The notes under the pieces: model-generated
The model's database searches: none
The model's input: only the letters and a program-made list of their open reading frames with translations
Told to the model about the DNA's origin: nothing
Assembly (NCBI GenBank): GCA_030706145.1
Contig: JAUZPB010000018.1
Span: 1 to 55,311, forward strand
DNA from: Bacteroidota bacterium
GTDB lineage: Bacteria; Bacteroidota; Ignavibacteria; Ignavibacteriales; SURF-24
Length of the DNA: 55,311 nucleotides
Direction of reading: 5' to 3'
Part shown: positions 15,391 to 55,311 of the stretch, piece by piece
Layout of the letters: every line of letters begins with the position of its first letter
Numbering within the stretch: position 1 is the stretch's first letter
Program-made: the position numbers and the translations under genes

Positions 15391-15464
15391 GGCGGGGTAG
15401 CTCAGTAGGTTAGAGCAATGGAATCATAATCCATGTGTCGGGGGTTCGAATCCCTCCCCCGCTA
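15391..15464 (+). tRNA. tRNA-Met (anticodon CAT), elongator type
   Basis: The sequence folds as a full cloverleaf. The acceptor stem is GGCGGGG with CCCCGCT (one G-U pair at the end), the D arm contains TAGCTCAGTAGGTTAGAGC, and the anticodon stem ATGGA/TCCAT encloses loop ATCATAA with anticodon CAT. The T arm GGGGG/CCCTC encloses TTCGAAT, and the discriminator base is A. The anticodon stem lacks the three G-C pairs of initiator tRNA and position 1-72 is paired, so it is not tRNA-fMet. Elongator Met fits best; a lysidine-modified tRNA-Ile(CAT) is less likely. CCA is not encoded. Confidence 0.93.
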
Positions 15465-35356: not shown

Positions 35357-36952
35357 CTATTTCTTAAATTCTTTGATTATTTTTTCAATCTCAGACTTCG
35401 ATATTCCTTGCCCATATATTTCTCCAGAGGCCATAGCTTTAGTTTCTAAAGTACTATGCTGCTCTTGTTGTGGTTTATTTGGCTTAAGTGAGAAATTCAG
35501 GGCCGGATTACCTGCCCGGGCAAGAAGCCTTTCTTCAATTTGCTGCATGAAACTAACCGATGAACTGAGCGAATTGATCGAGTTAAGCGAATTACCCTGA
35601 TTTATTTGAAGTGTCTCAAAAGCTAGTGTCTTTACATTAATTAAATGTTTTGCCGTTACATTTTCCGATACAATTGAACCACCCCAGGTACCTGGCCCTA
35701 ATGTAAGTGAGGGTGAAAGAGCCGTCGTGTAACCTACAGCACCAAGTGAGTTTATTGTGTTTACTAGGATTCTGAAGGCAGGCTTTTCAAGAGCAAATTT
35801 CATTATTATATCAGTATCATTTGAATGTATGACCATCGAGTGCCCAACCCCGCCGAAGTTTAATATTTCAATACATCTATGACAACCTTCAAGCCACCCG
35901 TCTACTGTATAAAATGCTAGTATGGGTGAGAGCTTTTCCATCGATAAAGGCTCTTCTTTACCCACTTTGTCAATTTCAGCAATAAGTACACGAGTTGAAT
36001 CGGGGACAGAAAATCCTGCATATTTTGCAATCCAGTGTGCTGATTTGCCAACAATTTCAGGATTTAACTTTCCATCGTTTGCAATTGCTGCCGATAGTTT
36101 TTTCTTCTCCTCGGGACAAACAAAATATCCACCCTGCGATTTTGCCTCTTCAATTACTTTTTCTCTTAACGGGCGATCTACAATTATTGCTTGTTCAGAT
36201 GAACATAATGTTCCATTGTCAAATGTGGTCCCGTAAATTATATCTGCTATTGCTTTCTTATAATTTGCAGACCTTTCAATAAATGCCGGTACATTACCAG
36301 AGCCGACTCCATAGGCTGGTTTTCCTGCACTATATGCAGCCTTTACCATCGGAGTACTACCTGTAGCTAAAATAACAGCAATATTCTTGTCCTTCATTAA
36401 GCACTCTGTTCCCTCAAGCGTTGGATTCTTCATGCACTGAATTAGACCTTTGGGGGCACCTGCTTTTTCTGCTGCTTCTGACATTATTCTTAAGGCTTCT
36501 GCCGAGGATTTTGTGGTTCGCGGATGGGGACTGCAGACGATTGCATTACGGCATTTGAGTGAAATTAGGGACTTAAACATGGCAGTGGAAGTAGGATTTG
36601 TCGACGGGATAAGTGCAGCTACTACTCCCATGGGCTCTGCAATCTTTAAGATTTTCCCGTTGTGCTCACTTGCAATTACACCAACGGTTTTTAGATCCTT
36701 TATTGAATCGTAGACATTTTTTGTGCTAAATTCATTCTTTGTCTTTTTGTCCTGTAATTTGCCAAAACCGCTTTCTTCACAAGCTAATTTTGCTAGCCGC
36801 TCGGCTTCTTTGTAACCGGCTTCGGCCATGGCTTTTATTATTTTGTCTACTTGCTCCTGGTTATAATGCTTGTACTCGAGTTGTGCTTCCTTTGCAATTT
36901 TTGTCAACTCTCTTACTTCTTGAACAGATTGAAGATCTTTGTCCAGATTCAT
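35357..36952 (-). CDS. CoA-acylating aldehyde dehydrogenase, possible microcompartment type
   Basis: This 531-residue enzyme oxidises an aldehyde to acyl-CoA with NAD. It is of the AdhE N-domain / PduP / EutE class, shown by the catalytic C250 in NGTLCSSEQ, the NAD-binding run ATGSTPMVKAAYSAGKP and GGVGHSMVIHS. There is no alcohol dehydrogenase domain. After the catalytic part (about 1-465) comes a low-complexity linker and a short amphipathic C-terminal helix ISKSEIEKIIKEFKK. Linker plus helix is the usual form of encapsulation peptides that send enzymes into bacterial microcompartments. No shell protein gene is nearby, so the substrate (propionaldehyde, lactaldehyde-derived or acetaldehyde) is open. 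Two 14-bp repeats lie upstream. Confidence 0.9.
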   Translation of the reverse strand: MNLDKDLQSVQEVRELTKIAKEAQLEYKHYNQEQVDKIIKAMAEAGYKEAERLAKLACEESGFGKLQDKKTKNEFSTKNVYDSIKDLKTVGVIASEHNGKILKIAEPMGVVAALIPSTNPTSTAMFKSLISLKCRNAIVCSPHPRTTKSSAEALRIMSEAAEKAGAPKGLIQCMKNPTLEGTECLMKDKNIAVILATGSTPMVKAAYSAGKPAYGVGSGNVPAFIERSANYKKAIADIIYGTTFDNGTLCSSEQAIIVDRPLREKVIEEAKSQGGYFVCPEEKKKLSAAIANDGKLNPEIVGKSAHWIAKYAGFSVPDSTRVLIAEIDKVGKEEPLSMEKLSPILAFYTVDGWLEGCHRCIEILNFGGVGHSMVIHSNDTDIIMKFALEKPAFRILVNTINSLGAVGYTTALSPSLTLGPGTWGGSIVSENVTAKHLINVKTLAFETLQINQGNSLNSINSLSSSVSFMQQIEERLLARAGNPALNFSLKPNKPQQEQHSTLETKAMASGEIYGQGISKSEIEKIIKEFKK

Positions 36953-37188: not shown

Positions 37189-37446
37189 TTAAAGATAGCT
37201 GAAAGATTCATTATCATATGAATCTGTATCACAATAAATTTTCTTATTTCTATCGGTATCTGGAGAAAGAGCTTGATCCTGTAATATATATACTTCTTCT
37301 TTGGGAATTAAATATGTACCGTTTACTTTCTGAACATTGGGAATTTTGTTTAACCAGATATAAAGGTCAATCTGGCCTACACTTTTACCAAGCATAGCCG
37401 CAGTTTCTTCAACACTAAAGTATTTCTTTTCCTTTTTAAAAAACAT
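37189..37446 (-). CDS. Small excisionase/MerR-type helix-turn-helix protein
   Basis: This protein of about 85 residues has a winged-helix DNA-binding domain of the excisionase (Xis)/MerR class: KYFSVEETAAMLGKSVGQIDLYIWLNKIPNVQKVNGTY with the wing YLIPKEEVY (about 9-55). A polar tail of about 30 residues follows. I place the start at the second Met (37446), preceded by AGAGGTGAAA, a strong ribosome-binding site; the longer frame from 37464 puts that site inside the coding region. No phage or integrase gene is nearby, so a host regulator is as likely as an excisionase. It lies upstream of the aldehyde dehydrogenase on the same strand. Confidence 0.7.
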   Translation of the reverse strand: MFFKKEKKYFSVEETAAMLGKSVGQIDLYIWLNKIPNVQKVNGTYLIPKEEVYILQDQALSPDTDRNKKIYCDTDSYDNESFSYL

Positions 37447-37794
37447 TTTCACCTCTTGAATCATAATTCTTTAATAGACTAAAAGCAGAGGAAGAATAAT
37501 GAAAATACTGCAATGAAAATTCATCAAAAAAGATGCCGTAAGAAAAGATCTTAAAAATGAGTTTTTTGCTTCGAATTTCTTCAATTAATGTAAATATTAC
37601 CAGAAGAAAGGTAAATACAGTGAATAATTAGGTAAATAGTGGTTAATAGTAGCCATGTGCAGCGCTGTAGACATATATGCCATTCTTAGAGCCTTAGCTG
37701 CGCATAAAACCATGATTTCTAAAGGCGAAATGATAATTTGCAAAAAAACATAGTATGATCTAAATTATGTAGCAAATTTTGTGGTATTTGAGGA
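37447..37794. other. Divergent intergenic region with imperfect 21-bp tandem repeat
   Basis: This region of about 350 bp separates the divergently transcribed HTH gene and ECF sigma gene. It contains two adjacent copies (37609-37629 and 37630-37650) of AGGTAAATA followed by related sequence (CAGTGAATAATT and GTGGTTAATAGT). The 21-bp period is two helical turns, as expected of a tandem binding site. TATGAT at 37754-37759 could be a -10 box for the sigma gene, without a clear -35 box. Confidence 0.45.
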
Positions 37795-38403
37795 ATGTCA
37801 GAAAACAGATCAATAATCGATGAAAAGGAATTATTAAAGGCCATTAAAAATTCTGATAATAATGCTTTTAAAGAACTTTCTGAGATTTATTATAAACAAC
37901 TATATGGATTTATCTGGAGAAGAATAGGAGATAGTGAAACTGTAAAAGACATACTTCAGGATCTTTTTCTGAATGTCTGGAAACTGCGTCATAACCTTGA
38001 TGAAGAAAGGCCTATTAAACCATATTTGTTTGCTGCCGCTAATAACCTTATTATCAATTATTCCAAAAAGAAAACATTTCTTAGAAACAATAAAGTAGAC
38101 TTGCCACAGGATGGGTTTTTAAGTAATTCCTCATCTTCTCTGGAATGGGAGTATTATATAAATGATGCTCTGTTGGAAATTCCGGAGAACCTTAAAGTCG
38201 TTTTTATGATGAATAAGTTTGAGGGATTTAAGTATGCAGAAATAGCAGAAATTTTGCGAATCTCCGAAAAGACTGTTGAAAGTAGAATGAGCAAAATTTT
38301 GAAATTTTTAAGAAAGAAGTATATCCATGCTCTAAAGCTGCTTTTATTAATTTTTCAGTTCATGATAGTGTTTTTTGCTCCTTTATTTGTATTAAAGAAA
38401 TAA
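37795..38403 (+). CDS. ECF sigma factor with hydrophobic C-terminal tail
   Basis: This 202-residue FecI-like sigma factor of the Bacteroidetes kind has region 2 at about 20-92 (YYKQLYGFIWRRIGD, ILQDLFLNVWKLR) and region 4 at about 120-175, with helix-turn-helix YAEIAEILRISEKTVESRMSKILK. Unusually, the last 22 residues (about 179-200, LLLLIFQFMIVFFAPLFVL) are strongly hydrophobic and could form a membrane helix, ending in two lysines. It is followed by a FecR-type gene and an STN TonB receptor, the usual surface-signalling order. It should direct transcription of the receptor and perhaps the secreted proteins downstream. Confidence 0.92.
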   Translation: MSENRSIIDEKELLKAIKNSDNNAFKELSEIYYKQLYGFIWRRIGDSETVKDILQDLFLNVWKLRHNLDEERPIKPYLFAAANNLIINYSKKKTFLRNNKVDLPQDGFLSNSSSSLEWEYYINDALLEIPENLKVVFMMNKFEGFKYAEIAEILRISEKTVESRMSKILKFLRKKYIHALKLLLLIFQFMIVFFAPLFVLKK

Positions 38404-38413
38404 AGTTAAAAAA

Positions 38414-39442
38414 ATGAATAAAAAAGAATTAAATATTTTACTGATTCGGAAATTATCCGGCGAGATCTCAGCAAAAGAGTTGAATAAACTTGAGATGTGG
38501 ATAAATGATTCGGAAGAAAACCGTCAGTATATGATGAAGTTGGAAAAGGCATGGTCTTCTATAAAAGCACCGCAACCAAAAGATATGCCCGATTTTGAAG
38601 AGTTCTGGCAAGATTTTAGCCATAGGCTAAAAGAAGATGAAGTTAAGCCTGCAAAATCTGAGTATGAAACGTTGATTAGAAAAAAGAGGCCTTTTTCACA
38701 ATTTCAGCTAAAAGTATTTAGAAAACCTGCCTTTAGTTATGCATTTGCAGTCCTGCTTTTGATATCAATCGGGATATTTGTGCTTTTGAATTCATTAAAT
38801 CAGAATCATACTATCTTCTATTCGACTAAGTACTCTGAACACAAAAGCCTTATACTGCCTGATGGATCTACTGCTTTTCTAAATGCTGGTAGCCAGCTTA
38901 GTGTTATGGATTTTAAGGACAAAAGAATAGTATATCTAAAAGGACAAGCTTTATTTAATGTTTTAAAAAATAAAGGCGAGTTTTTGGTCCTGACCGACAA
39001 TGCTGATATTAAGGTTACCGGGACAAAGTTTGATGTAAAAGCACGCGAGGGGAAAACACGCGTTGTTGTTGAAGAAGGTACAGTTTTGCTTAATGCTAAG
39101 TCGATCGGTAATTCTTCTTCTGTTGCAATTCATGCAGATCAGATGAGTGAATGTTATAAGAATATGAATCCAACTTCACCCGCCTTTGTTAACGCAAAAT
39201 ATATCAATGGCTGGGTCAATAACTCATTGATCTTTGAAAAAAATACCTTAAAGGAAATTACAAATGAGCTGCAAAGACAATATAATATAAATATAAAAAT
39301 TGAAAACAGTTCTTTGCAAAACAGACCCATTACAGGCCAGTTCACTAATAATCAGCCAATAGAAGATGTCCTTAATGCAATTACTTTATCATTAAATGCT
39401 AAGTACAAAAAGGAAAATAATACTTTTATTATTTATCAATAA
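38414..39442 (+). CDS. FecR-type anti-sigma factor / sigma regulator
   Basis: This 342-residue membrane protein relays a signal from the outer-membrane receptor to the ECF sigma factor. It has a cytoplasmic N-terminal domain (about 1-95, starting LLIRKLSGEISAKELNKLEMW). One membrane helix follows (about 110-128, YAFAVLLLISIGIFVLLNS), then the periplasmic FecR domain (about 135-240, with LILPDGSTAFLNAGSQLS and VTGTKFDV). A C-terminal STN-like DUF4974 domain (about 265-340, FEKNTLKEITNELQRQYNI) contacts the receptor. It lies 10 bp after the sigma gene. Confidence 0.94.
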   Translation: MNKKELNILLIRKLSGEISAKELNKLEMWINDSEENRQYMMKLEKAWSSIKAPQPKDMPDFEEFWQDFSHRLKEDEVKPAKSEYETLIRKKRPFSQFQLKVFRKPAFSYAFAVLLLISIGIFVLLNSLNQNHTIFYSTKYSEHKSLILPDGSTAFLNAGSQLSVMDFKDKRIVYLKGQALFNVLKNKGEFLVLTDNADIKVTGTKFDVKAREGKTRVVVEEGTVLLNAKSIGNSSSVAIHADQMSECYKNMNPTSPAFVNAKYINGWVNNSLIFEKNTLKEITNELQRQYNINIKIENSSLQNRPITGQFTNNQPIEDVLNAITLSLNAKYKKENNTFIIYQ

Positions 39443-39553
39443 AATATCATTTCTGTAGAAGAAATATGTTTAGCTTCTTTTGCACAATAGTTTGAGAGTT
39501 AAAAGGGGATCTTACAGGAATTTCTAGGGAGTATTATTTTTAGTGGGGGTATA

Positions 39554-42160
39554 TTGAGAAAAATAAAATACTTGTGCCTGTTTTTTGTACTTCTTGTTTC
39601 ACTGAATTATCCGCAACAAACCTCTGAAAGTTTTAAGATTACTCTTAGCGCTGTAAATGAACCTTTGGAGCGTTTCCTGAAGGATATTTATCGCAAGACA
39701 AATGTTACCTTTGTTTATAGTGACGATGTAATCCAAAATTTGAAAGTATCCTGCAAATTTAATGGCATCTCATTAAATAATGCGCTTGAGGAAATATTAA
39801 CTCCACTAAATCTGGATTTCAAATATTCAAACGAAAAACAAATAGTAATTTATAGATCTTCAGAAAAAAAATATTACAACCTTGAAGGGCTTGTTGTTGA
39901 TCAGAATACGGGCGAACCACTACCTTATGTTGTCCTTTCAGCAAATGCTTCTTTAATCAATTCTGTTACAAATTCTGAAGGCCGTTTTTTTCTTCAAAAA
40001 CTTCCATCTCCCAATATTGAACTTTCGCTTAAGAGAATTGGATATCAAAATAAAACTATTACCATAAACACATTACTTTATAAAACTCATAAAGTAATTA
40101 TTACACTTACTGAATCTGTAATTAATTATAACCCTATTTTAGTTGAATCTGAAGCATATGATATATTTCACATTTCCAATGATGCAAGCAGACTTTCTTT
40201 TTCTTCTCAAAATTATTCACTACTTCCAGTAATTGGTGACAGGGATATATCACGTGCTCTTCAGCTAATGCCGGGTATAAACACTAGTAATTTTGGCTCA
40301 TCGGGCCTTAATATACGATCTGGCATTCCCACGCAAAATCTCCTTCTTCTAGATGGGATTGTCTTATACCATATGAACCATTCTTTTGGGTTCTTCAGCT
40401 CTTTTAATCCCGATATTGTAAAAGATGTAAATGTGTATAAAGGCGGATTCCCAGCTAAATATGGAGGCAGAGTAGCAGGTATCATTGAATACAGTTCAAA
40501 GAGTGGAGATGTAAACAATACTCATATAACATTAGGAGCTAACCAACTAAGCTTTAAGGGTACGGCGGAAATCCCTTTATTTGGTAAAGGATCAGTCCTC
40601 TTATCAGCAAGACGTTCTTTTTCAGACTATATACTTGGAAGTCTGTATGATCGTATCTTTAATTCCTTCCAGCAAAATATTGCGCTCTATGAGCCGGAAA
40701 GGCAGCAAAGGAACTCCGAAGATGAAAAACACAATAACTACTTTTATGATCTGTTTGGTAAAGTTACTTTTATTCCAACTGACAATAATATAGTCTCTAT
40801 AAGTTGTTTTACAGGAAAGGATAGATCCGAGACAAATGGAACTTCTAGAGATGCTTCCATTGGCTTTGGCGAAAACTCTCAGGTAAAGAACGATGGCATT
40901 AGTTTTAGATGGTTTAGGCAATGGGACCCTAGAGCATTTAGTGTCTTTTTGTTCTCAAGCTCTAACTATTCAACAAACAATAATAAATTATGGCAGAATA
41001 AAGTACCTGCTGATACTTTTTTTATTAACAGACTTTCCACTGCAAATTTATTAAATGATAACTCTTTTCGTCTTGATAACGTCTGGGATGTAGATCCCTC
41101 TCATAGAATTGAAACAGGTATTTCATATACAAAGGTCTCAACTTCCTTTAATTTCGAAATGGAATATGTTCCGGCCTATGACGTCCATCTGAGAAATAAA
41201 TTTCAAAACGACAAGAAAGGATTGACTTCTTTCTATCTGCAGGATATCTGGAAAATTTCTTCAAAACTTATTCCAACAGTTGGTGTTAGATTTGACAAAT
41301 ACGAACCATCTGCTAATGTTGATTTTGAACCTCGATTGTCTGTTAATTATCTTTTATCTGAAAGAATTACTCTTAAAGGGGCATTGGGAAAATATTATCA
41401 ATATATCATGCAGTTAGATGACTTCTCGAATATTTTACAGGGGCGAATTTCCTGGATAGCTGCAAATGGAAGCGATGTAAAACCATCTTCTGCTGAACAT
41501 TACATATTAGGCGCTAAATATGAACTAAATGACTTTTTACTCGATGTCGAACTCTATTACAAAAAACTCTATAATGTTTTGGAATCTCTTCAAGAGTGGT
41601 CGTTATCTGAGAGAAATTATCAGTCCTTGGCAATTCAAAACGATGCAAACGCAAAGGGGATAGATATTATTTTAAGAAAAAAAGTTGGAGCTTTTTCAGG
41701 TTGGATTAGCTACAGCTACTCAAAGGCTAAAAGTAAATACTATGTGGATAACCATGAAAAACAATGCCCGTCTTCAACAGATTGCCCACACAAACTTGAT
41801 CTGGCTGCAAGCTTAAATCTGGGAGACTTTATTCTTTCAGCAACCTGGAGATATTTTTCAGGAAAACCATACTCAGTTCCAGCAGTTGGTATTATGGAAG
41901 GAACTGATATGAAATACCTTTATAAACCTGAGGAATTCAATAATTACCGTTTCCCAGGTTCACACCAAATGGATATTAGCCTTTCATATATTTATTCAGA
42001 TTCTTTTATCAAAGCTAATGGTGGTATATCTGTATTCAATGTTTATGACCGAAAAAATATTTGGTATAGATTTATTAATCTGAAAAACAATAATCTGCTT
42101 ATTACCGATGTATTTATGTTGGGTGTAACTCCAACTCTATTTATAGAAGTGCAATTCTAA
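39554..42160 (+). CDS. TonB-dependent outer-membrane receptor with signalling (STN) domain
   Basis: This 868-residue receptor would import a substrate and also signal to the FecR-type protein next to it. Domain order: signal peptide (about 1-22), STN domain (about 28-105, LSAVNEPLERFLKDIYRKTN), carboxypeptidase-like regulatory domain (about 115-195, VVDQNTGEPLPYVV), plug (about 220-325, DISRALQLMPGI, NIRSGIPTQNLLLLDG) and beta-barrel to the C-terminus, ending LFIEVQF with the usual aromatic end. Translation starts at TTG (39554), preceded by GGGGGT; there is no ATG before the signal peptide. The substrate is unknown, but the two secreted proteins downstream suggest a peptide or polymer. Confidence 0.92.
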   Translation: MRKIKYLCLFFVLLVSLNYPQQTSESFKITLSAVNEPLERFLKDIYRKTNVTFVYSDDVIQNLKVSCKFNGISLNNALEEILTPLNLDFKYSNEKQIVIYRSSEKKYYNLEGLVVDQNTGEPLPYVVLSANASLINSVTNSEGRFFLQKLPSPNIELSLKRIGYQNKTITINTLLYKTHKVIITLTESVINYNPILVESEAYDIFHISNDASRLSFSSQNYSLLPVIGDRDISRALQLMPGINTSNFGSSGLNIRSGIPTQNLLLLDGIVLYHMNHSFGFFSSFNPDIVKDVNVYKGGFPAKYGGRVAGIIEYSSKSGDVNNTHITLGANQLSFKGTAEIPLFGKGSVLLSARRSFSDYILGSLYDRIFNSFQQNIALYEPERQQRNSEDEKHNNYFYDLFGKVTFIPTDNNIVSISCFTGKDRSETNGTSRDASIGFGENSQVKNDGISFRWFRQWDPRAFSVFLFSSSNYSTNNNKLWQNKVPADTFFINRLSTANLLNDNSFRLDNVWDVDPSHRIETGISYTKVSTSFNFEMEYVPAYDVHLRNKFQNDKKGLTSFYLQDIWKISSKLIPTVGVRFDKYEPSANVDFEPRLSVNYLLSERITLKGALGKYYQYIMQLDDFSNILQGRISWIAANGSDVKPSSAEHYILGAKYELNDFLLDVELYYKKLYNVLESLQEWSLSERNYQSLAIQNDANAKGIDIILRKKVGAFSGWISYSYSKAKSKYYVDNHEKQCPSSTDCPHKLDLAASLNLGDFILSATWRYFSGKPYSVPAVGIMEGTDMKYLYKPEEFNNYRFPGSHQMDISLSYIYSDSFIKANGGISVFNVYDRKNIWYRFINLKNNNLLITDVFMLGVTPTLFIEVQF

Positions 42161-42366
42161 AGATATTATAACATTGATCCCTATCTTAAGCTAGTCATAT
42201 GACAGCACAATCTGTCTCTTAAGGAATTTTAACTTATGAGAAGTTTGTGCGTAATTATTCTCCAGACTGAAATACTTAAAAATTTTTCTTTTGACCCATA
42301 GGGTATTTCCTCTCATGAATGTATTAGGATTATGAATTCAGAATAATTTATTAGAGAGGAGAATTT

Positions 42367-44673
42367 ATGAACTTATCATTCAATAAGGCTCTTATTGTTT
42401 TTGCCTTATTCTCAAGCTTAGCATATTCACAGCCATCTGGCTGGAAATTTCAACACCCTTATCCAGATGGGGAATATAACACGGCAATCAAAGCAACTAA
42501 TAATAATGTTTTTGTCTGTGGATTATTTGGGAAAATTATTAAATCAACAAATGGTGGCTTGAACTGGAATAAACCAGACTGGCAGACTATTAGAAATTTT
42601 TTCGCAGTCGATTTTATTGATGATAATAATGGCATTGTCGCAGGCGGAAATGGAGATATTTTTAAGACTACAAACGGCGGTGAAAACTGGCTAAGGGTTT
42701 ATCCTTCCGATGCCTTCTTAGTAGAAGATATAAAATTTATCAGCTCAAAAGAAATTGTTGCAGTTGGAAGAAGTCAAAAACTTATTAGATCTGATGATGA
42801 GGGAAATACATGGAAAACCTCTCAATTCCCAGAAAGATGTTGGGTCAAATCTCTAAGTTTCAATAAAAATAGAGTAGGTCTTGCTTGTGGCGCCAAAGAT
42901 ACCTCAGGTGTAATCTTTAGAACAACTGACGGAGGAATTACATGGAAAACTGCTTTTTCTCCACACCAGGAAATGGGTGCTATTTGCTTTGTTAATGAAA
43001 ATATAGCTTTTGCTGTTGGAAGACAGACAATTTGCAAGACAACTGATGCTGGCTTGACTTGGTCTGAGTCAAGGAACAAATCCATATCCGATATGATAGC
43101 TTTCTCCTCTATAAGCTTTGCAACTGAAACTGTTGGGATAATTACTGGAACTTATGGAGTGATTCTTAGGACAACTGATGCAGGTGATAACTGGCTACAG
43201 TTGCCAAGGCAAAACTCAGTCCCATATACCTTCGACTGGAATGATCCGGACCTAAATGAGGTTGCATTTTGCAGTAACTCAACAGGTTATATTGTTGGCG
43301 CCTATGGAACAATTCTAAAAACTACCGATGCAGGCCGCAATTGGATAAAACTTTCCAATGGTAAAACTTCTTTTCTTTCAGATATTAAGTTTATTGATGC
43401 CTCAAATGGTGTAGCTGTAGGTGGCAGTTCTGTGGTCGTGACTACAAATGGGGGAAAGGAGTGGATTGAGAAAAATCCATCTCTTTATAAAAGATTTACT
43501 ACAGTTAAAATGCTATCGCCCAAACATATTAGTGTTTTAGGAACATCCTATGAAAATCAGGGATATATTGCCAATAACTTCAGCAAAAAAATATCTTCAA
43601 AATTCTCACTTGCTAAAATTCCATTTTCCACTTTGGATAATTTTCAAAACGATACAACTCTTACAATGGTAACCTTCGATGGGGGAAATACATGGAAGTA
43701 TAGCAGTTTTGGCAATGATATGTTTATATCAGCTATGGATTTTGGCGATGATAAAAATGGAATAATTCTAGGTTTCGAAAATACAGGATCCATTTTCCCT
43801 CCAAATGAATCAATAGGAATTAAGGCAAGCGTCTTTAAGACTACAGATGGTGGATTATCATGGCTACCATTTTCTGAAATAACGGCTAAAGAAACTTTCC
43901 ATCCATTTAAAGTGAAATTTTTCTCAAGCTTAAAAGTTCTAGCTTTAGGTGAATTTGGATTGGTTTATGAATCAACTGACGGAGGAAAAAATTGGCATTA
44001 TCTTTCTGAACTTCCACTTAAGAGCACAGTAACTTCCATGTATTTTTTAGATGAACTTAATGGCTTTGTTTCAACTCTTAGTGGAATATATAAAACAAGT
44101 GATGGTGGAAAGACTTGGTCATTTATTTATGATTGCAGTAGTACTGGCATAAGAATCCATTCTGTAAATTTTCCCGATATTAATAATGGCTATGCAGTCG
44201 GTGAAGGTTCTACTGGCCCTAATTACTGTGTGATCTTAAGGACGACCGATGGAGGTCAAAACTGGTCCTTTGAATATCCGCCAACTGTAAGTACTCTTTA
44301 TTCTGTCTTTTCTATAAGTCCTAATGTTGCATATGCTGCAGGTTATGGCGGGGCAATACTAACTAACCTAAATAATCAAACATCTGTTAATAACGGCCCA
44401 AATACTGTAAATCGATTCACTCTTTTGCAGAATTATCCAAACCCATTTAATCCTTCAACTATAATAAACTATGAAATATCAAAAACCGCTTTGGTAAAAT
44501 TGACAGTGTATAATTCAATTGGAGAAAAGATCTCTGAATTAGTAAATGAAGAAAAAACTCCGGGAAGATATTCTGTAAGATTTGATGGAAGAGGTTTGTC
44601 TAGCGGTTTATACTTTTATTCACTTGTTTCAGACGGTCATGTTCAAACTAATAAGATGATCTTGCTAAAATAG
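42367..44673 (+). CDS. Secreted BNR/Ycf48-type beta-propeller protein with type IX secretion tag
   Basis: This 768-residue protein has a signal peptide (about 1-21). A chain of about eleven BNR-like repeats follows, recognised by recurring KTTNGGENW, RTTDGGITW, RTTDAGDNW, KTTDGGLSW and STDGGKNW, as in Ycf48/HCF136-type propellers. At the C-terminus (about 685-768) is a type A sorting domain with QNYPNPFNPST, ending NKMILLK, which sends it through the type IX system to the cell surface. A GAGAGGAG ribosome-binding site precedes the ATG. It could bind or process a surface polymer; no enzyme motif is seen. It lies 206 bp after the receptor gene. Confidence 0.88.
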   Translation: MNLSFNKALIVFALFSSLAYSQPSGWKFQHPYPDGEYNTAIKATNNNVFVCGLFGKIIKSTNGGLNWNKPDWQTIRNFFAVDFIDDNNGIVAGGNGDIFKTTNGGENWLRVYPSDAFLVEDIKFISSKEIVAVGRSQKLIRSDDEGNTWKTSQFPERCWVKSLSFNKNRVGLACGAKDTSGVIFRTTDGGITWKTAFSPHQEMGAICFVNENIAFAVGRQTICKTTDAGLTWSESRNKSISDMIAFSSISFATETVGIITGTYGVILRTTDAGDNWLQLPRQNSVPYTFDWNDPDLNEVAFCSNSTGYIVGAYGTILKTTDAGRNWIKLSNGKTSFLSDIKFIDASNGVAVGGSSVVVTTNGGKEWIEKNPSLYKRFTTVKMLSPKHISVLGTSYENQGYIANNFSKKISSKFSLAKIPFSTLDNFQNDTTLTMVTFDGGNTWKYSSFGNDMFISAMDFGDDKNGIILGFENTGSIFPPNESIGIKASVFKTTDGGLSWLPFSEITAKETFHPFKVKFFSSLKVLALGEFGLVYESTDGGKNWHYLSELPLKSTVTSMYFLDELNGFVSTLSGIYKTSDGGKTWSFIYDCSSTGIRIHSVNFPDINNGYAVGEGSTGPNYCVILRTTDGGQNWSFEYPPTVSTLYSVFSISPNVAYAAGYGGAILTNLNNQTSVNNGPNTVNRFTLLQNYPNPFNPSTIINYEISKTALVKLTVYNSIGEKISELVNEEKTPGRYSVRFDGRGLSSGLYFYSLVSDGHVQTNKMILLK

Positions 44674-47377
44674 TTTCAAATTAGGAGCGTATATGAATTA
44701 TTATGAAATATTGAAATAAACTGTGGAGTAATTAAATGCTTAATAACATATATAGAAAAATAATCCTGTTGCTTACAATATGCACAGCAGGCTTTGCGCA
44801 GAGTAGTAACTCAGTAAATATTACTAAGAAAGATGGACTAATGTATTTGTCAAATACTGTTGTCGTAAAGCTTAAAGATAATAATCTTTCTAAAGTATCG
44901 GGTATTGCCTCCATTCCCAATGCGATTAGGCAAAACATGAAAAACTGTGCAATTTCATCTGTAAGGAATTTTTTTAATGCTAAGTCTGTGACCCGTGCAT
45001 CTTTGTCTAATGTTCTTGAAATAAAGTATACATCTGCAGATGATCCATTAAGTATTGCACAGAACCTTGAAAAATCTGGAGCTGTTTTGTGGGCTGAGCC
45101 GCACTATGTTTATAAAACATCTTACTTACCTAATGATCCATCGCTAATAGATCAATGGAGCCTAAAGAAAATAATGGCCGAAGAAGCATGGGATATCTCT
45201 CAAGGTGATACATCTATTGTAATTGGTATTGTTGATACTGGCGTAGATTGGGACCATCCGGACCTTGCTGCTAATATATGGACTAATTATAAGGAGATTC
45301 CTGGAAATGGTATTGATGATGATCATAATGGTTATGTTGATGATGTTAGAGGCTGGGATTTTGGCGGGACCACTGGTATTGCAGATAATGATCCTGTTGA
45401 GGATCGACCTGATCATGGAAGTCATGTAGCAGGTATTGCTTCTGCTGTTACAAATAATTCAACTGGTGTGGCCTCAATTGGCTATAAATGTAAGATAATG
45501 CCTGTAAAAACAAGTGTGGATAATACAAGGGATGTTAATGACCGGGCATATATTGTTTATGGCTTTGAGGGAATAGTCTATGCTGTAGATAATGGAGCGA
45601 AAATAATTAATTGCAGCTGGGGAGGCAGCCAATATTCAAAAGCAGGTAAGGAAGCAATTGACTATGCCTTCTCAAAGGGAGTTTTAGTTGTCGCATCTGC
45701 TGGAAATAGCTCAAGTAATGCACCAAATTACCCGGCTTGTTATCCAGGTGTCTTGTCTGTAGCCTCAACTTCAAAAGACGACAGGTTATCTTCATTTTCA
45801 AGTTTTGGATCCCACGTTTGTCTCTCAGCTCCAGGTGAAGGTATCTATTCTACTTGGCTCAATGATACATATGCTACTTTTAGCGGAACATCAATGGCTT
45901 CACCTCTGGTTGCAGGCTTGGCCGGACTGGTTAAAGCGAAATTCCCAGACTATAATTATATGCAGATTGCTGAGCAGATAAGAGTAAATTCTGATAAGAT
46001 CGATCAGCTGAACCCTGGATTCGAGAACCTTATTGGCTATGGCAGAATTAATGCTTATAAGGCTGTATCTAATAAAAAGTCTTTAGCCGTTCGTCTTAAG
46101 TATCTGAAGGTCTCTGATGATACCCCTGGAGGTAATTCAGATGGAGTTTTTGAACGAGGTGAAACAATATCAATTGGAGCAAAATTTCTTAACGTCCTTA
46201 ACTCTTTTGAATCAATGAAAATTTCTTTGGAAACTCGAGATACAAATGTTGTAATTCAAAATGGAAGCTTTATTGCCTCTTCGGTTGCAAAGCTGGATTC
46301 ATTTGATAATTTTAATAATAAATTTACTATAAAGATAAAACCTAACACACCTGAAAATGCTACTATTACCTTTTTATTAAAATATTCTTCTGGTGACTAT
46401 AATGATTATCAGTGGGATAGTATTGTAGTAAATCAAACCTATCAAACTCAATCTTCAGGAAAGATTGCCCTTACTATTACAAGTGCTGGTAAACTCGGGT
46501 TTAATGATTTTTGGCAAAACACTCAGGGTGTAGGCTTTCATTATAAAAATGGGGATAATCTACTCTATGAAGGAGCTTTAATGTTTGGGAATTCGGCCGG
46601 CAGAATTTCAGACGTTGCACGAGGCATTTCGGAAGAGGACTCAGCTTTTAAAATGATAAAGCCATTTATAATCAGTAATAATTCGCAGAAGGCTGATTTT
46701 GAAGGTCTGACTGTCTTTAATGACGATGGGGCCGGTGATAAGAAATATGGTCTTGAAACATCCCTTTCAAGTTATTCATGGGTGAGTGAACCTTATAATG
46801 ACTTTATTATTCTTCACTATAGAATGCATAATAAAAGTAATGTAGATATCAGTAATTTTTATGCTGGACTTTACCTTGATTGGATGGTTTCAACAGAAGC
46901 ACCAAACTCTGATGTTGCAGCTTTTGATGATGAAGAGAAACTGGGATATGTTTTTAAGATTGGTGGAAATCCCGCTACACATGTTGGATGTGCATTGATT
47001 TCAGATGATGCTTGTAATTATTACGCCATTAATAATAGTGGCGGTGATGGTGGAGTTGGTGTGTATGCTGGTAGTGGTGGTTTTACAAATCAGGAAAAAT
47101 GGCTGACCTTAACTAATGGTACAAGAAAAAAACGGGCGGAAAATACAGATGTTTCTTTTGTGATTTCTTCTGGACCTCATAATATTATTGCAAATGATAC
47201 ATTAGAAGTTGCCTTTGCAATAGCTGCTTCAGATGATATACAAAGTCTCAAAAAAGTAATAAAACTTGCCCGCTCTAAATATAATACAATTATCAACCGT
47301 ACTACGTCAATTTTGGATTCTGATAATAGGCCAGAGCAGTACTCTCTGGAACAGAATTATCCAAACCCATTTAATCC
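44428..47377 (+). repeat. Two copies of a 26-bp identical DNA stretch encoding the sorting-tag core
   Basis: The 26 bases encoding QNYPNPFNP are identical at the DNA level at 44428-44453 and at 47352-47377, while flanking codons differ. Identical codon choice over nine residues suggests either recent tag exchange by recombination or strong codon preference in this motif. The span given covers both copies and is not itself repeated. Confidence 0.85.
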
Positions 47378-47597
47378 ATCAACTACTATTAACTATAGCC
47401 TTGCAAAATCATCACAGGTTGAATTAAAGATTTATGATATGCTGGGACGCGAGGTTAAAACTCTTGTAAATAAAATACAAAATGCTGGGCACTATAAAGT
47501 TCATTTCGATGCTTCCCAGCTTAAAAGTGGAGTCTATATTTATTTACTTCAGACTCCGGAGTTCAGAGAATCTAAGAAACTTATGATCTTAAGGTAG
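44736..47597 (+). CDS. Secreted subtilisin-like serine protease (S8) with type IX secretion tag
   Basis: This 953-residue protease has a signal peptide (about 1-21) and an inhibitor-like propeptide (about 38-125). The S8 catalytic domain (about 140-450) carries D167 (IVDTGVDWDHPD), H227 (DHGSHVAGI) and S386 (FSGTSMASP). A long region (about 455-865) follows with no family I recognise, containing NDDGAGDKKYG and glycine-rich GGDGGVGVYAGSGG. It ends in a type A sorting domain (about 870-953) with QNYPNPFNPST and KKLMILR. It should cleave proteins outside the cell. The gene lies 62 bp after the propeller protein, so they may be co-transcribed, and 46 bp before a convergent response regulator. 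Confidence 0.94.
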   Translation: MLNNIYRKIILLLTICTAGFAQSSNSVNITKKDGLMYLSNTVVVKLKDNNLSKVSGIASIPNAIRQNMKNCAISSVRNFFNAKSVTRASLSNVLEIKYTSADDPLSIAQNLEKSGAVLWAEPHYVYKTSYLPNDPSLIDQWSLKKIMAEEAWDISQGDTSIVIGIVDTGVDWDHPDLAANIWTNYKEIPGNGIDDDHNGYVDDVRGWDFGGTTGIADNDPVEDRPDHGSHVAGIASAVTNNSTGVASIGYKCKIMPVKTSVDNTRDVNDRAYIVYGFEGIVYAVDNGAKIINCSWGGSQYSKAGKEAIDYAFSKGVLVVASAGNSSSNAPNYPACYPGVLSVASTSKDDRLSSFSSFGSHVCLSAPGEGIYSTWLNDTYATFSGTSMASPLVAGLAGLVKAKFPDYNYMQIAEQIRVNSDKIDQLNPGFENLIGYGRINAYKAVSNKKSLAVRLKYLKVSDDTPGGNSDGVFERGETISIGAKFLNVLNSFESMKISLETRDTNVVIQNGSFIASSVAKLDSFDNFNNKFTIKIKPNTPENATITFLLKYSSGDYNDYQWDSIVVNQTYQTQSSGKIALTITSAGKLGFNDFWQNTQGVGFHYKNGDNLLYEGALMFGNSAGRISDVARGISEEDSAFKMIKPFIISNNSQKADFEGLTVFNDDGAGDKKYGLETSLSSYSWVSEPYNDFIILHYRMHNKSNVDISNFYAGLYLDWMVSTEAPNSDVAAFDDEEKLGYVFKIGGNPATHVGCALISDDACNYYAINNSGGDGGVGVYAGSGGFTNQEKWLTLTNGTRKKRAENTDVSFVISSGPHNIIANDTLEVAFAIAASDDIQSLKKVIKLARSKYNTIINRTTSILDSDNRPEQYSLEQNYPNPFNPSTTINYSLAKSSQVELKIYDMLGREVKTLVNKIQNAGHYKVHFDASQLKSGVYIYLLQTPEFRESKKLMILR

Positions 47598-47600
47598 AAA

Positions 47601-47642
47601 TTTTTTTTTTTTTGGAGGGCAGTAAGACTGCCCCCTAAAAAA
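47601..47642. terminator. Hairpin between convergent protease and response-regulator genes
   Basis: GGGCAGT/ACTGCCC forms a 7-bp stem with loop AAG. The stem is preceded by 13 T and followed by six A, so U-A pairing can extend it. On both strands the T run comes before the stem and not after, so it is not a standard intrinsic terminator, though it lies where both genes should end. Confidence 0.5.
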
Positions 47643-47643
47643 T

Positions 47644-48396
47644 CTAATTGAAGATCTCTTTTAATTTTGCATATCCATTTTTACTTACCGGAAGACTCGA
47701 GCCATCATTTAATATAACATGGTATGACTCTTTTTCAAAAAGTTCAATTTGCTTGATCTGACTAAGCTTTACAATATATGACCTATGTATGCGAATAAAA
47801 TCTTCTGGATTTAAGTGATCCTCAAAGTATTTCATTGTCTTTTGTTTTAAGAATTTCCCTTCGCTTGTATGCATCATTACGTAATCATCCTGTGCTTCAA
47901 GCCATCTAAGGTTTTCAACAGGAATAATCGATATTTTCGATCCGGTTTTTACTACAATCCTTTCTAGAAATTCTTCTTTCTTGTCAATTTGGCCTATTAA
48001 CTTTTCAACATTTTCTTTTGAACTTTTTTTATCTTTTAAAAGAAATAAAGCTTTCTCGAGAGCTTCATTGAACCTTTCTAAAGAAAATGGCTTTAACAGG
48101 TAATCTGTTGCATTTACTTCAAAAGCCTTCAAAGCAAACTGATCGTAGGCTGTAGTAAAAATAACTACGGGCATTTCCTCAATTAATTCCAGCATTTCAA
48201 AACCGGTTATCTTGGGCATTTGAATATCCAGAAATACTATATCAGGCTTTTTCTCGTTTATGGCTTTTAAGCCCTCAAAACCATTTGAACATTCAGATAT
48301 TAGTTCAACTTTATCATTTGTAGATAAATATTTCTTTATGATCTCTCTTGCAAGAGATTCATCATCGATTATTATTGCTTTAACTTTTTCCATCAT
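47644..48396 (-). CDS. LytTR-family response regulator
   Basis: This 250-residue regulator has a receiver domain (about 1-125) with D11-D12 and phospho-acceptor D57 (FLDIQMP), and the K of LLKPF near residue 105. A LytTR DNA-binding domain follows (about 145-250) with WLEAQDDYVMMHT and the signature FIRIHRSYIVKLSQI. LytTR domains bind direct repeats in promoters. Its start overlaps the histidine-kinase gene by 17 bp, marking a two-component pair with it. Likely targets are envelope genes, in view of the LiaF-like protein at the head of the operon. Confidence 0.94.
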   Translation of the reverse strand: MMEKVKAIIIDDESLAREIIKKYLSTNDKVELISECSNGFEGLKAINEKKPDIVFLDIQMPKITGFEMLELIEEMPVVIFTTAYDQFALKAFEVNATDYLLKPFSLERFNEALEKALFLLKDKKSSKENVEKLIGQIDKKEEFLERIVVKTGSKISIIPVENLRWLEAQDDYVMMHTSEGKFLKQKTMKYFEDHLNPEDFIRIHRSYIVKLSQIKQIELFEKESYHVILNDGSSLPVSKNGYAKLKEIFN

Positions 48397-53278: not shown

Positions 53279-55311
53279 ATGCAAAGATTCTTTATGAGTA
53301 TCATTCTGATCATTGTATGTTGCAGCATTCAGATTATGGCTCAAAAAAATCCTTCTGGTACTGTCAGTGGTTTTGTTTACGATAATGCAAACGGCGAGGC
53401 CCTCATTGGCGCAAATGTCCATTTTGAGGATCTTGGAATTGGAACAACTACAAACTTGAGTGGCTATTTTGCAATTCCCAATGTCCCATTTGGAAATCAG
53501 ATTCTTAATATCAGTTATCTTGGTTATAAGTCACAACAAATAAAACTTAAAGTTTCAAAAGAAAACAATATACTAAAGATTAAGCTGGAACTTGATGCCC
53601 TTCAAACCAAAGAAATTGTTATTGCCGCTGACTCAGTTAGAACAATTGATAAGTTATTTTCAAAACCAGTATCAAAGATTGAACTAAGTTCAAAACAAAT
53701 CAATAATGTCCCCAGAGTTATTGAGGCTGATTTACTACGTTCACTGCAAACTTTGCCTGGTATACAATCTCTTTCTGACTTTTCAAGTGCTCTTTATATT
53801 AGAGGTGGTACACCTGACCAAAATCTTTATTTAATTGATGGCACTGATGTATATAATCCAGAACACGCCTTTGGCTTATTCTCAACTTTTAATACAAATG
53901 CAATTAAAAAAGTCGAACTTTCTAAAGGCGGTTTTAGTGCAGAATATGGTGGAAGACTTTCATCTATATTGAATGTTACTAATCTTGATGGAAATAGAAA
54001 CCACTTTCAGGGTGATGCTAGTATTAGCCTCTTAGCTGCTTCAACTACTCTTCAGATGCCTTTGGGCTCATTTGGCTCTATCTCTGGCTCGATTAGAAGA
54101 ACTTACCTTGATAAGACAGTAGCAGAGTTTGTGGACGAAATCCCTGACTATTATTTCTATGATGGAAATCTTAAGGCTTTCTTCGATATCAGCCCAAAGA
54201 ATAAACTAATTGCAAGTTTCTATGGCGGGCAAGATAAGCTTGACTATAAGTTTGATAAGAAAGCTGAAAATCCTATCGGCTTCCAGCTCGACTGGGGAAA
54301 TACTACGGGGAGTTTGAACTGGAAAACAATTTTTAATCCGGAACTCTTTGCCAATTTCTGGATTACTGCTAGCCATTTCAGATCTTATTTTAATTTCGAA
54401 GAAGCAAAGGTCAAAGAGGAAAATGTTATTAACGACCTGACATTCAAGGGGAGCTTGGAATACTATATGTCAAAGTATTTCAATCTTAAATTCGGTTTTG
54501 AACAAAAGAACATTGATGGCCTGTTAAAGGATGATTTTCAGGATGGAAAGGTGGATGTTAGTAAAAGAAGAACTCTTTATACTTCATATGTTACTGCTAA
54601 CTGGAAACCATCTGACCTCTGGGATATTGAAACTGGCCTTCGCGCAGATTACTTTCATTCAGATAAAGACTATAAAGATTTTGACCCTAGATTTTCAATT
54701 AAATACAGGCTTACTGAAACTACAGACCTGAAGTTTTCAACAGGCATTTTCCACCAGTATGTTCATAGGATGCCAAGAGGTGTACTGACAAGCATTTGGC
54801 TAACTTCAGATGAAAACTATAAGGGATCAAGTTCATGCCACTATATTCTTGGATTCCAAAAAGAGATCAGTCAGATATACGAGTTTGAATTAGAAGGGTA
54901 TTACAAAACATATAATGATATTTATTCTTATAATCAAAATTTCCTTGCAGATATTAAAGCTGGCAGATTTGATGAACAGAATAACCCGGTTTACAATAAT
55001 TCAAAAGGCCTGTTAGACCACGGCAATGGTAATTCTCTTGGGGTCGAACTCCTGATACGAAAAGATGATGGCGCAATAACTGGCTGGATAGGTTATTCTC
55101 TTTCGAGAACTGAATATAAAGTAGATGGAATAAATATGGATAGGTCTTTTGTCCCACGCCACGACAGATCTTCTACTATGAATCTGATGTCAAATATTGA
55201 TATTAATGCATTCTTTGACGAAATAAAAGATGAGAGCGCAACTAATGAACACTCATCTAAGTGGCTCCTGGGAGTAAATTTTGTCTTTGCTACTGGCCAG
55301 CCAATTACTAT
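53279..55311 (+). CDS. TonB-dependent receptor, 3' end outside the window
   Basis: This open frame runs from ATG at 53279 (GGAGAGAT ribosome-binding region) to the window end without a stop, giving 677 codons. It has a signal peptide (about 1-22) and a carboxypeptidase-like regulatory domain (about 27-115, GFVYDNANGEALIGANV). The plug (about 140-240) has EADLLRSLQTLPGI, ALYIRGGTPDQNLYLIDGT and KGGFSAEYGGRLSS; the start of the barrel follows. It has no STN domain, unlike the receptor at 39.6-42.2 kb, so it cannot signal through a FecR-type protein. It is transcribed away from the ABC operon. Substrate unknown. Confidence 0.92.
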   Translation, partial: MQRFFMSIILIIVCCSIQIMAQKNPSGTVSGFVYDNANGEALIGANVHFEDLGIGTTTNLSGYFAIPNVPFGNQILNISYLGYKSQQIKLKVSKENNILKIKLELDALQTKEIVIAADSVRTIDKLFSKPVSKIELSSKQINNVPRVIEADLLRSLQTLPGIQSLSDFSSALYIRGGTPDQNLYLIDGTDVYNPEHAFGLFSTFNTNAIKKVELSKGGFSAEYGGRLSSILNVTNLDGNRNHFQGDASISLLAASTTLQMPLGSFGSISGSIRRTYLDKTVAEFVDEIPDYYFYDGNLKAFFDISPKNKLIASFYGGQDKLDYKFDKKAENPIGFQLDWGNTTGSLNWKTIFNPELFANFWITASHFRSYFNFEEAKVKEENVINDLTFKGSLEYYMSKYFNLKFGFEQKNIDGLLKDDFQDGKVDVSKRRTLYTSYVTANWKPSDLWDIETGLRADYFHSDKDYKDFDPRFSIKYRLTETTDLKFSTGIFHQYVHRMPRGVLTSIWLTSDENYKGSSSCHYILGFQKEISQIYEFELEGYYKTYNDIYSYNQNFLADIKAGRFDEQNNPVYNNSKGLLDHGNGNSLGVELLIRKDDGAITGWIGYSLSRTEYKVDGINMDRSFVPRHDRSSTMNLMSNIDINAFFDEIKDESATNEHSSKWLLGVNFVFATGQPIT

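What the first reader, a model, noticed from the sequence alone, without database searches (positions are those of the whole stretch)
37795..47597. Candidate system: surface-signalling receptor linked with two type IX-secreted proteins
On one strand in order lie an ECF sigma factor, a FecR-type regulator, an STN TonB receptor, a secreted BNR propeller protein and a secreted subtilisin-like protease. Both secreted proteins carry the same sorting tag. The order suggests a sense-digest-import unit: the protease releases a product, the receptor imports and senses it, and the sigma factor raises expression. The propeller might bind the substrate. This is not a SusCD-type locus, as no SusD gene is present.
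Basis: inference. Interest (0 to 1): 0.55.

Follow-up and report, generated by a model that had tools for sequence, protein, structure and literature searches.

The report
Nutrient-sensing operon with two exported proteins
A bacterium's outer-membrane sensor-importer gene set sits directly before genes for an exported propeller protein and an exported protease; the sensor part is a known type, the full line-up was found in no relative examined, but a separate conserved operon in the same bacteria carries the same kinds of parts, which suggests exported proteins may feed such importers.

Summary
The five genes are real and correctly described. The first three form a FecI-FecR-FecA-type cell-surface signalling set whose receptor belongs to the TonB-receptor family normally paired with DUF4249; that partner is missing here. 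The five-gene order is not kept: 0 of 33 FecR loci in relatives carry the subtilase, and 20 of 20 orthologous subtilase loci carry no FecR. The subtilase is an extra copy of a conserved protease whose sister copy keeps an ancestral-looking neighbourhood. The shared sorting tag means little: the genome has 150 such tags. Yet the idea is not empty. Twelve relatives, and this genome on two other contigs, keep a different FecI-FecR-receptor operon that runs DUF4876, DUF6850, a type IX-tagged BNR propeller and, where visible, M28 and/or M16 peptidases; homologous DUF4876 loci are iron-starvation-induced in Bacteroides and Porphyromonas (PMC10434189). The window is best read as a lineage-specific, non-orthologous locus of similar composition. 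Co-regulation and substrate are untested.

The parts
37795..38403 (+). ECF (FecI-like) sigma factor, 202 aa, with a hydrophobic C-terminal tail
   Evidence: Pfam Sigma70_r2 1.9e-10, Sigma70_r4_2 1.3e-13; TIGR02985 118.8 bits, cut-off 126.4; tail hydropathy
38414..39442 (+). FecR-type anti-sigma/regulator with one hydrophobic segment near residues 104-126, then FecR + FecR_C domains
   Evidence: Pfam FecR 3.3e-15, FecR_C 1.5e-18; hydrophobic segment read
39554..42160 (+). TonB-dependent transducer: hydrophobic N-terminus, STN, CarbopepD_reg_2, Plug, barrel; family normally paired with DUF4249
   Evidence: Pfam; full-length homologues L162, L163, L189; TTG start is the ORF caller's choice
42367..44673 (+). 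Exported tandem beta-propeller of YCF48/BNR type with T9SS type-A C-terminal sorting domain (residues 690-765)
   Evidence: PSII_BNR 9.8e-42, Por_Secre_tail 3.3e-07; AlphaFold2 model pLDDT 79.9, pTM 0.64, PDB folds GH74, PorZ, YCF48
44736..47597 (+). Exported S8 subtilase with intact catalytic residues and T9SS type-A sorting domain; extra copy of a conserved protease
   Evidence: Peptidase_S8 2e-52, Por_Secre_tail 8.1e-13; catalytic residues; tree
42161..42366 (+). 206-base gap between receptor and BNR genes, where most relatives have DUF4249; no significant hairpin (z -0.98)
   Evidence: three-frame translation shows no long ORF
47598..47643 (.). GC-rich hairpin between the convergent subtilase and LytTR genes, flanked by a T-run 5' and an A-run 3' (not a canonical stem-then-T terminator)
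   Evidence: fold z -3.68 on 47575-47660

Best explanation
A FecI-FecR-FecA-type cell-surface signalling set has an STN transducer of the DUF4249-partner receptor family. A ligand binding the receptor outside is imported with TonB energy; the STN domain then acts on FecR, which frees the sigma factor to raise transcription of the receptor operon (known mechanism of this class, inferred here). In this lineage the usual partner DUF4249 is absent from the locus and two type IX-exported proteins lie immediately downstream: a tandem propeller and an extra copy of a conserved subtilase. The most likely role is nutrient or metal-carrier scavenging in which the propeller and protease act on extracellular proteins or complexes and the receptor takes up a small product, echoing the conserved FecIR-receptor-DUF4876-DUF6850-BNR-M28-M16 operon of the same order. 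Shown: gene content, domains, catalytic residues, absence of order conservation, existence of the parallel operon. Inferred: co-transcription, substrate, digestion-import coupling.
For: Triad domains. STN is rare: one match over cut-off in the genome. Homologous SIG-FecR-receptor triads in G365 and G212; FecR directly upstream of the receptor in ten of 79 genome-contig loci. DUF4249 follows the receptor directly in 57 of those 79 loci, and two other receptors of this genome keep it. All five genes are co-oriented with gaps of at most 206 bases. Parallel operon: 12 of 12 DUF4876-type FecIR loci in relatives carry a tagged BNR gene, M28 follows in 9 of 11 where visible and M16 in 9 of 9 where visible; this genome holds it on contigs C279 and C84. 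The nearest named homologous triad, L189 (Calditrichia), runs DUF4249 then a tagged LVIVD-repeat protein. A BNR-family gene directly after a chosen gene is expected about 0.3% of the time (14 ORFs counted, about 4,400 genes assumed).
Against: Order not conserved. The window BNR does not fall with the parallel operon's BNRs (100/100 clade), though the test does not reject joining them (p-AU 0.097), so the parallel is convergence at best. Of 21 other FecR loci in relatives none shows BNR downstream (L095 is cut by its contig end). Tagged genes cluster anyway. The 0.3% figure was computed after seeing the pattern. One subtilase orthologue (L116, G002) does sit beside a TonB receptor, but its match begins after the STN region and no FecR is there. 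No transcript data.
Confidence: 0.45

Rival explanations
1. Chance neighbours: an ordinary FecI-FecR-receptor operon that ends at 42160, followed by two unrelated type IX cargo genes with their own promoters.
For: No conservation of the order; the subtilase is a moved duplicate of a protease normally near gyrase and Cys/Met-PLP genes in its family; 150 tagged proteins, 40 of 150 in same-strand pairs within 4 kb; the largest gap (206 bases) lies between receptor and BNR.
Against: No hairpin stands out in the 206-base gap (z -0.98; the one scan hit near it, 42118-42135, lies inside the receptor gene, and the scan found 7 sites against 6.4 expected); a BNR gene in FecIR loci recurs in the order.
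Confidence: 0.4
2. Carbohydrate scavenging: the propeller is a GH74-like glycan-active protein and the receptor imports a glycan product; the protease is incidental.
For: Best PDB folds of the BNR model are GH74 xyloglucanases (TM about 0.53).
Against: Sequence search of PDB finds only YCF48/HCF136, no GH74, at E 0.001; 12-16% identity and a generic tandem-propeller fold; no glycosidase, SusD or sugar gene among the ten proteins scanned.
Confidence: 0.06
3. Surface maintenance or type IX support: the propeller (PorZ/YCF48-like fold) and protease process surface proteins, and the FecIR set merely marks an envelope-responsive neighbourhood (LytTR-kinase and LiaF-like genes follow).
For: PorZ among the fold matches; LytTR, histidine kinase and LiaF-like genes downstream.
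Against: Those genes are convergent, on the other strand; the fold match to PorZ is loose (rmsd 13.8).
Confidence: 0.09

Closest known systems
FecI-FecR-FecA cell-surface signalling (E. coli ferric citrate; review PMC9249621, passages read)
   Same: Sigma, FecR and STN-bearing TonB receptor adjacent and in this order
   Different: CarbopepD_reg_2 domain between STN and plug; no ABC importer genes adjacent; two type IX cargo genes downstream; ligand unknown
TonB receptor-DUF4249 pairs (BT2172-BT2173; PMC11003636, passages read)
   Same: Receptor family: nearest homologues are followed by DUF4249 in 57 of 79 loci. That BT2172 itself is of this family was not tested
   Different: DUF4249 absent here; STN, FecR and sigma present
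DUF4876/DUF4857 iron-starvation loci (PG1019-22, BT3625-33, BT1933-39; PMC10434189, passages read) and FecIR-linked DUF4876 operons of this order
   Same: FecIR control, STN receptor, and in this order a tagged BNR propeller and peptidases
   Different: Non-orthologous receptor, BNR and peptidase families; no DUF4876 or DUF6850 in the window locus
SusCD utilisation loci
   Same: Outer-membrane TonB receptor with an exported hydrolase nearby
   Different: No SusD

Membership tests
FecI-FecR-FecA-type cell-surface signalling | ECF sigma + FecR anti-sigma adjacent | tested here: met
   Pfam/NCBIfam, 10-base gap
FecI-FecR-FecA-type cell-surface signalling | TonB receptor with N-terminal STN domain next to them | tested here: met
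   STN 34.1 bits, cut-off 28.4; only match over cut-off in the genome
FecI-FecR-FecA-type cell-surface signalling | Ligand-dependent sigma activation of the receptor gene | not testable with these tools
   needs expression data
TonB receptor-DUF4249 pair | Receptor of the family | tested here: met
   27-35% identity to seven homologues; 57 of 79 loci with DUF4249 next
TonB receptor-DUF4249 pair | DUF4249 gene adjacent | tested here: not met
   BNR follows instead; the genome's four DUF4249 matches are on other contigs
SusCD locus | SusD lipoprotein gene next to receptor | tested here: not met
   no SusD-family hit among the ten proteins scanned
FecIR-DUF4876-DUF6850-BNR-peptidase operon of this order | DUF4876 and DUF6850 genes after the receptor | tested here: not met
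   absent in the window locus; present on contig C84 of the same genome
FecIR-DUF4876-DUF6850-BNR-peptidase operon of this order | BNR gene in that operon's BNR clade | tested here: inconclusive
   outside the 100/100 clade, but p-AU 0.097 for joining
Type IX secretion cargo | type-A C-terminal sorting domain, and a T9SS translocon in the genome | tested here: met
   PF18962 and TIGR04183 above cut-off in both proteins; SprA_N

The most novel reading that the evidence does not exclude
In Ignavibacteria-class bacteria, FecI-FecR-controlled TonB receptors have repeatedly been wired to type IX-exported beta-propellers and peptidases, making a surface 'capture, cut and import' module, possibly for iron or haem held in proteins. 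The window would be a second, independently assembled example next to a conserved one.
Probability: 0.25. Interest if true: 0.65.

Novelty: new variant of a known kind. Interest (0 to 1): 0.38.

Why it matters
FecIR signalling is known for siderophore and metal-chelate uptake. If exported propellers and proteases belong to such regulons, the receptors would be the inducible end of extracellular protein digestion without any SusD. The conserved sister operon (sigma, FecR, receptor, DUF4876, DUF6850, tagged BNR, M28, M16) also gives a concrete, genetically testable context to two families without known function.

Tried and rejected
Five-gene conservation was tested from three sides (FecR, receptor, subtilase) and rejected. 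The shared sorting tag as a link was rejected on base rate. Window BNR as the orthologue of the sister operon's BNR: not supported, not excluded. A leftover of DUF4249 in the 206-base gap: none seen. Promoter and terminator scans were uninformative: 45 promoter-like sites against 46.9 expected, 7 terminator-like against 6.4. Receptor against PDB by sequence: no match at 1e-5. Subtilase middle region (about 450-870): the fold search returned subtilisin-domain matches, nothing decisive for that region. GC content shows no sharp step at the locus. Paper searches: DUF4876/DUF6850/DUF4857 (3 papers), Ignavibacteria with T9SS/TonB, DUF4249, FecR with T9SS, YCF48/BNR with T9SS, Ignavibacterium/Por secretion/FecR, sigma C-terminal transmembrane, FecR-T9SS-peptidase-Ignavibacteri combination (none). 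Only listings and the passages named in the report were seen.

Full report
WHAT IS THERE. The five ORFs stand as described with domains confirmed by Pfam and NCBIfam: ECF sigma 37795-38403, FecR 38414-39442, STN/CarbopepD_reg_2/Plug/barrel receptor 39554-42160, BNR/YCF48-like propeller with type-A sorting domain 42367-44673, S8 subtilase with the same kind of domain 44736-47597. Gaps are 10, 111, 206 and 62 bases; catalytic D167, H227, N324, S386 are in place. The genes end against convergent LytTR, histidine kinase and LiaF-like genes. The genome is an unnamed 5.34-Mb assembly of 345 contigs. Its class is probably Ignavibacteria: a genome placed in the same class (G206) shares a 300-base stretch exactly with record PMZI01000040.1, titled Ignavibacteriae bacterium.

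BASE RATES. The genome has 150 PF18962 matches; 40 of 150 have another on the same strand within 4 kb, against about 16 expected if spread evenly. The two window tags share 36 of 83 residues, less than the subtilase's tag shares with several tags elsewhere (57-65%). So the common tag does not link the two genes. By contrast STN is rare (one match over cut-off), and PSII_BNR has 47 matches in what I count as 14 ORFs over cut-off.

IS THE ORDER KEPT? FecR search of 59 genomes: 25 have matches, 35 rows, 33 of them in relatives. I fetched all 33 neighbourhoods (about 6.5-20 kb, some cut by contig ends). None of them holds a subtilase of this family. Subtilase search: 48 of 59 genomes have a match at E 9.1e-145 or better; of these I inspected 20 relatives' loci. 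20 of 20 lack FecR and a BNR partner; one (L116) has a TonB receptor without the STN region next door. In several of the same family the neighbours are a gene of gyrase-A size and a Cys/Met PLP-enzyme-sized gene, identified by Pfam in L116; this genome's second copy (contig C167, L182) also sits beside a Cys/Met PLP enzyme. In a 22-row tree the window copy, the C167 copy and those of G003 and G004 form a 100/99 group. The window subtilase is therefore an extra copy that came to lie here, not part of an ancient unit.

THE RECEPTOR. In 391 genomes of the class, 113 have receptor matches at 1e-60 (two candidates scored per genome); among the listed rows only G365:C254 and G212:C153 reach into the first ten residues besides the window. 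Both are SIG-FecR-receptor triads; G212 then has DUF4249 (PF14054), G365 a convergent tagged gene; neither has BNR or subtilase. Pfam's STN model itself does not reach E 0.001 in these two, so their STN rests on alignment with the window receptor. This matches the published statement that the BT2172 subfamily of TonB transporters is almost always next to DUF4249 (PMC11003636, passages). The window lacks DUF4249 at this place; four matches lie elsewhere in the genome.

AN UNEXPECTED PARALLEL. Of the 33 FecR loci in relatives, 12 (G002, G003, G004, G011, G017, G018, G022, G025, G037, G044, G050, G051) are of one type: sigma, FecR, a receptor of about 995 aa, DUF4876 (PF16215), in some an ABC transporter/DUF4857 block, DUF6850 (PF21012), then a tagged BNR gene (12 of 12; nine seen directly, three after fetching the next stretch). 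Pfam was run on L106 and L102 members only (STN there is 26.2 bits, under the 28.4 cut-off); the rest rest on my profiles. L095 is cut by its contig end after the receptor. Beyond BNR lie an M28 peptidase (9 of 11 where the stretch is visible; G025 and G037 lack it) and an M16 peptidase (9 of 9 where visible), in some a tagged SBBP propeller. In G011 the contig ends after BNR. Sigma was not called in every one of these loci (not in L096 and L105). This genome has sigma-FecR-receptor on C279 and DUF4876-DUF6850-BNR-M28-M16 on C84, both at contig ends; the join is inferred. The other 21 relatives' FecR loci show no BNR downstream, and one (L291) a tagged gene. DUF4876/DUF4857/TonB loci are strongly induced by iron starvation in P. 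gingivalis (PG1019-22) and B. thetaiotaomicron (BT3625-33), and weakly at BT1933-39 (PMC10434189, passages). In a 21-row tree the operon's BNRs form a 100/100 group that includes C84 and excludes the window BNR; forcing the window in is not rejected (p-AU 0.097; long branches). So the window is not a degraded copy of that operon, but has a similar composition. The nearest named homologous triad (L189, Calditrichia) has DUF4249 followed by a protein with LVIVD repeats and a tail that my CTD profile hits.

STRUCTURE. The BNR model (pLDDT 79.9, pTM 0.64) resembles tandem propellers: GH74 enzymes, PorZ, YCF48. By sequence only YCF48/HCF136 match in the PDB. The subtilase model (pLDDT 78.2) matches thermitase and deseasin over the catalytic domain.

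HOW IT PROBABLY WORKS. From established knowledge of FecA/FpvA systems (review PMC9249621, passages): ligand binding and TonB energy move the STN domain, which acts on FecR, and the sigma factor then transcribes the receptor gene. I put the chance that at least one of the two exported genes is tied to this receptor at about even, because BNR genes recur in FecIR operons of the order; the case for the protease is weaker. The named mechanism (capture and cut outside, import of a small product, perhaps iron- or haem-related) is inference.

VERDICT. Observation confirmed; interpretation partly supported; a new variant of FecIR signalling loci. The more valuable by-product is the conserved sister operon, which I did not find described in the searches listed under Tried and rejected.

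Noticed in passing
37795-38403 (+), residues about 180-202: The sigma factor ends in a strongly hydrophobic tail (hydropathy 2.78 over 19 residues, the highest of the sigma ORFs listed); shorter hydrophobic tails occur in several other FecI-like sigmas next to FecR. A membrane-attached sigma factor is conceivable.
   Followed up: partly
L093:6430-7095 (-), L094:6323-6997 (-), L092: The FecRs most similar to the window's (G049, G038, G015) are followed by TonB_C proteins, in L093 one with an STN domain fused to TonB_C, instead of a receptor.
   Followed up: partly
L186 (contig C279) and L184 (contig C84): Two contig ends that carry the halves of the conserved FecIR-DUF4876-DUF6850-BNR-M28-M16 operon in the window's own genome.
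   Followed up: yes
L107:3-4440 (+): G017 has a second, divergent DUF4876-like/DUF6850-like/BNR set upstream of its FecIR operon.
   Followed up: no
35357-36952 (-) and 37189-37464 (-): Acetylating acetaldehyde dehydrogenase (TIGR02518 just over cut-off) with a small HTH_17-like gene upstream, divergent from the sigma gene.
   Followed up: no
47598-47643: GC-rich hairpin between convergent genes flanked by a T-run before and an A-run after the stem, the reverse of a canonical terminator; fold z -3.68.
   Followed up: partly
53363-54145 (+): Another TonB receptor of the same broad kind begins near the window's right end.
   Followed up: no
15391-15464 (+): A tRNA gene, the only Rfam match over gathering score in the window.
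   Followed up: no
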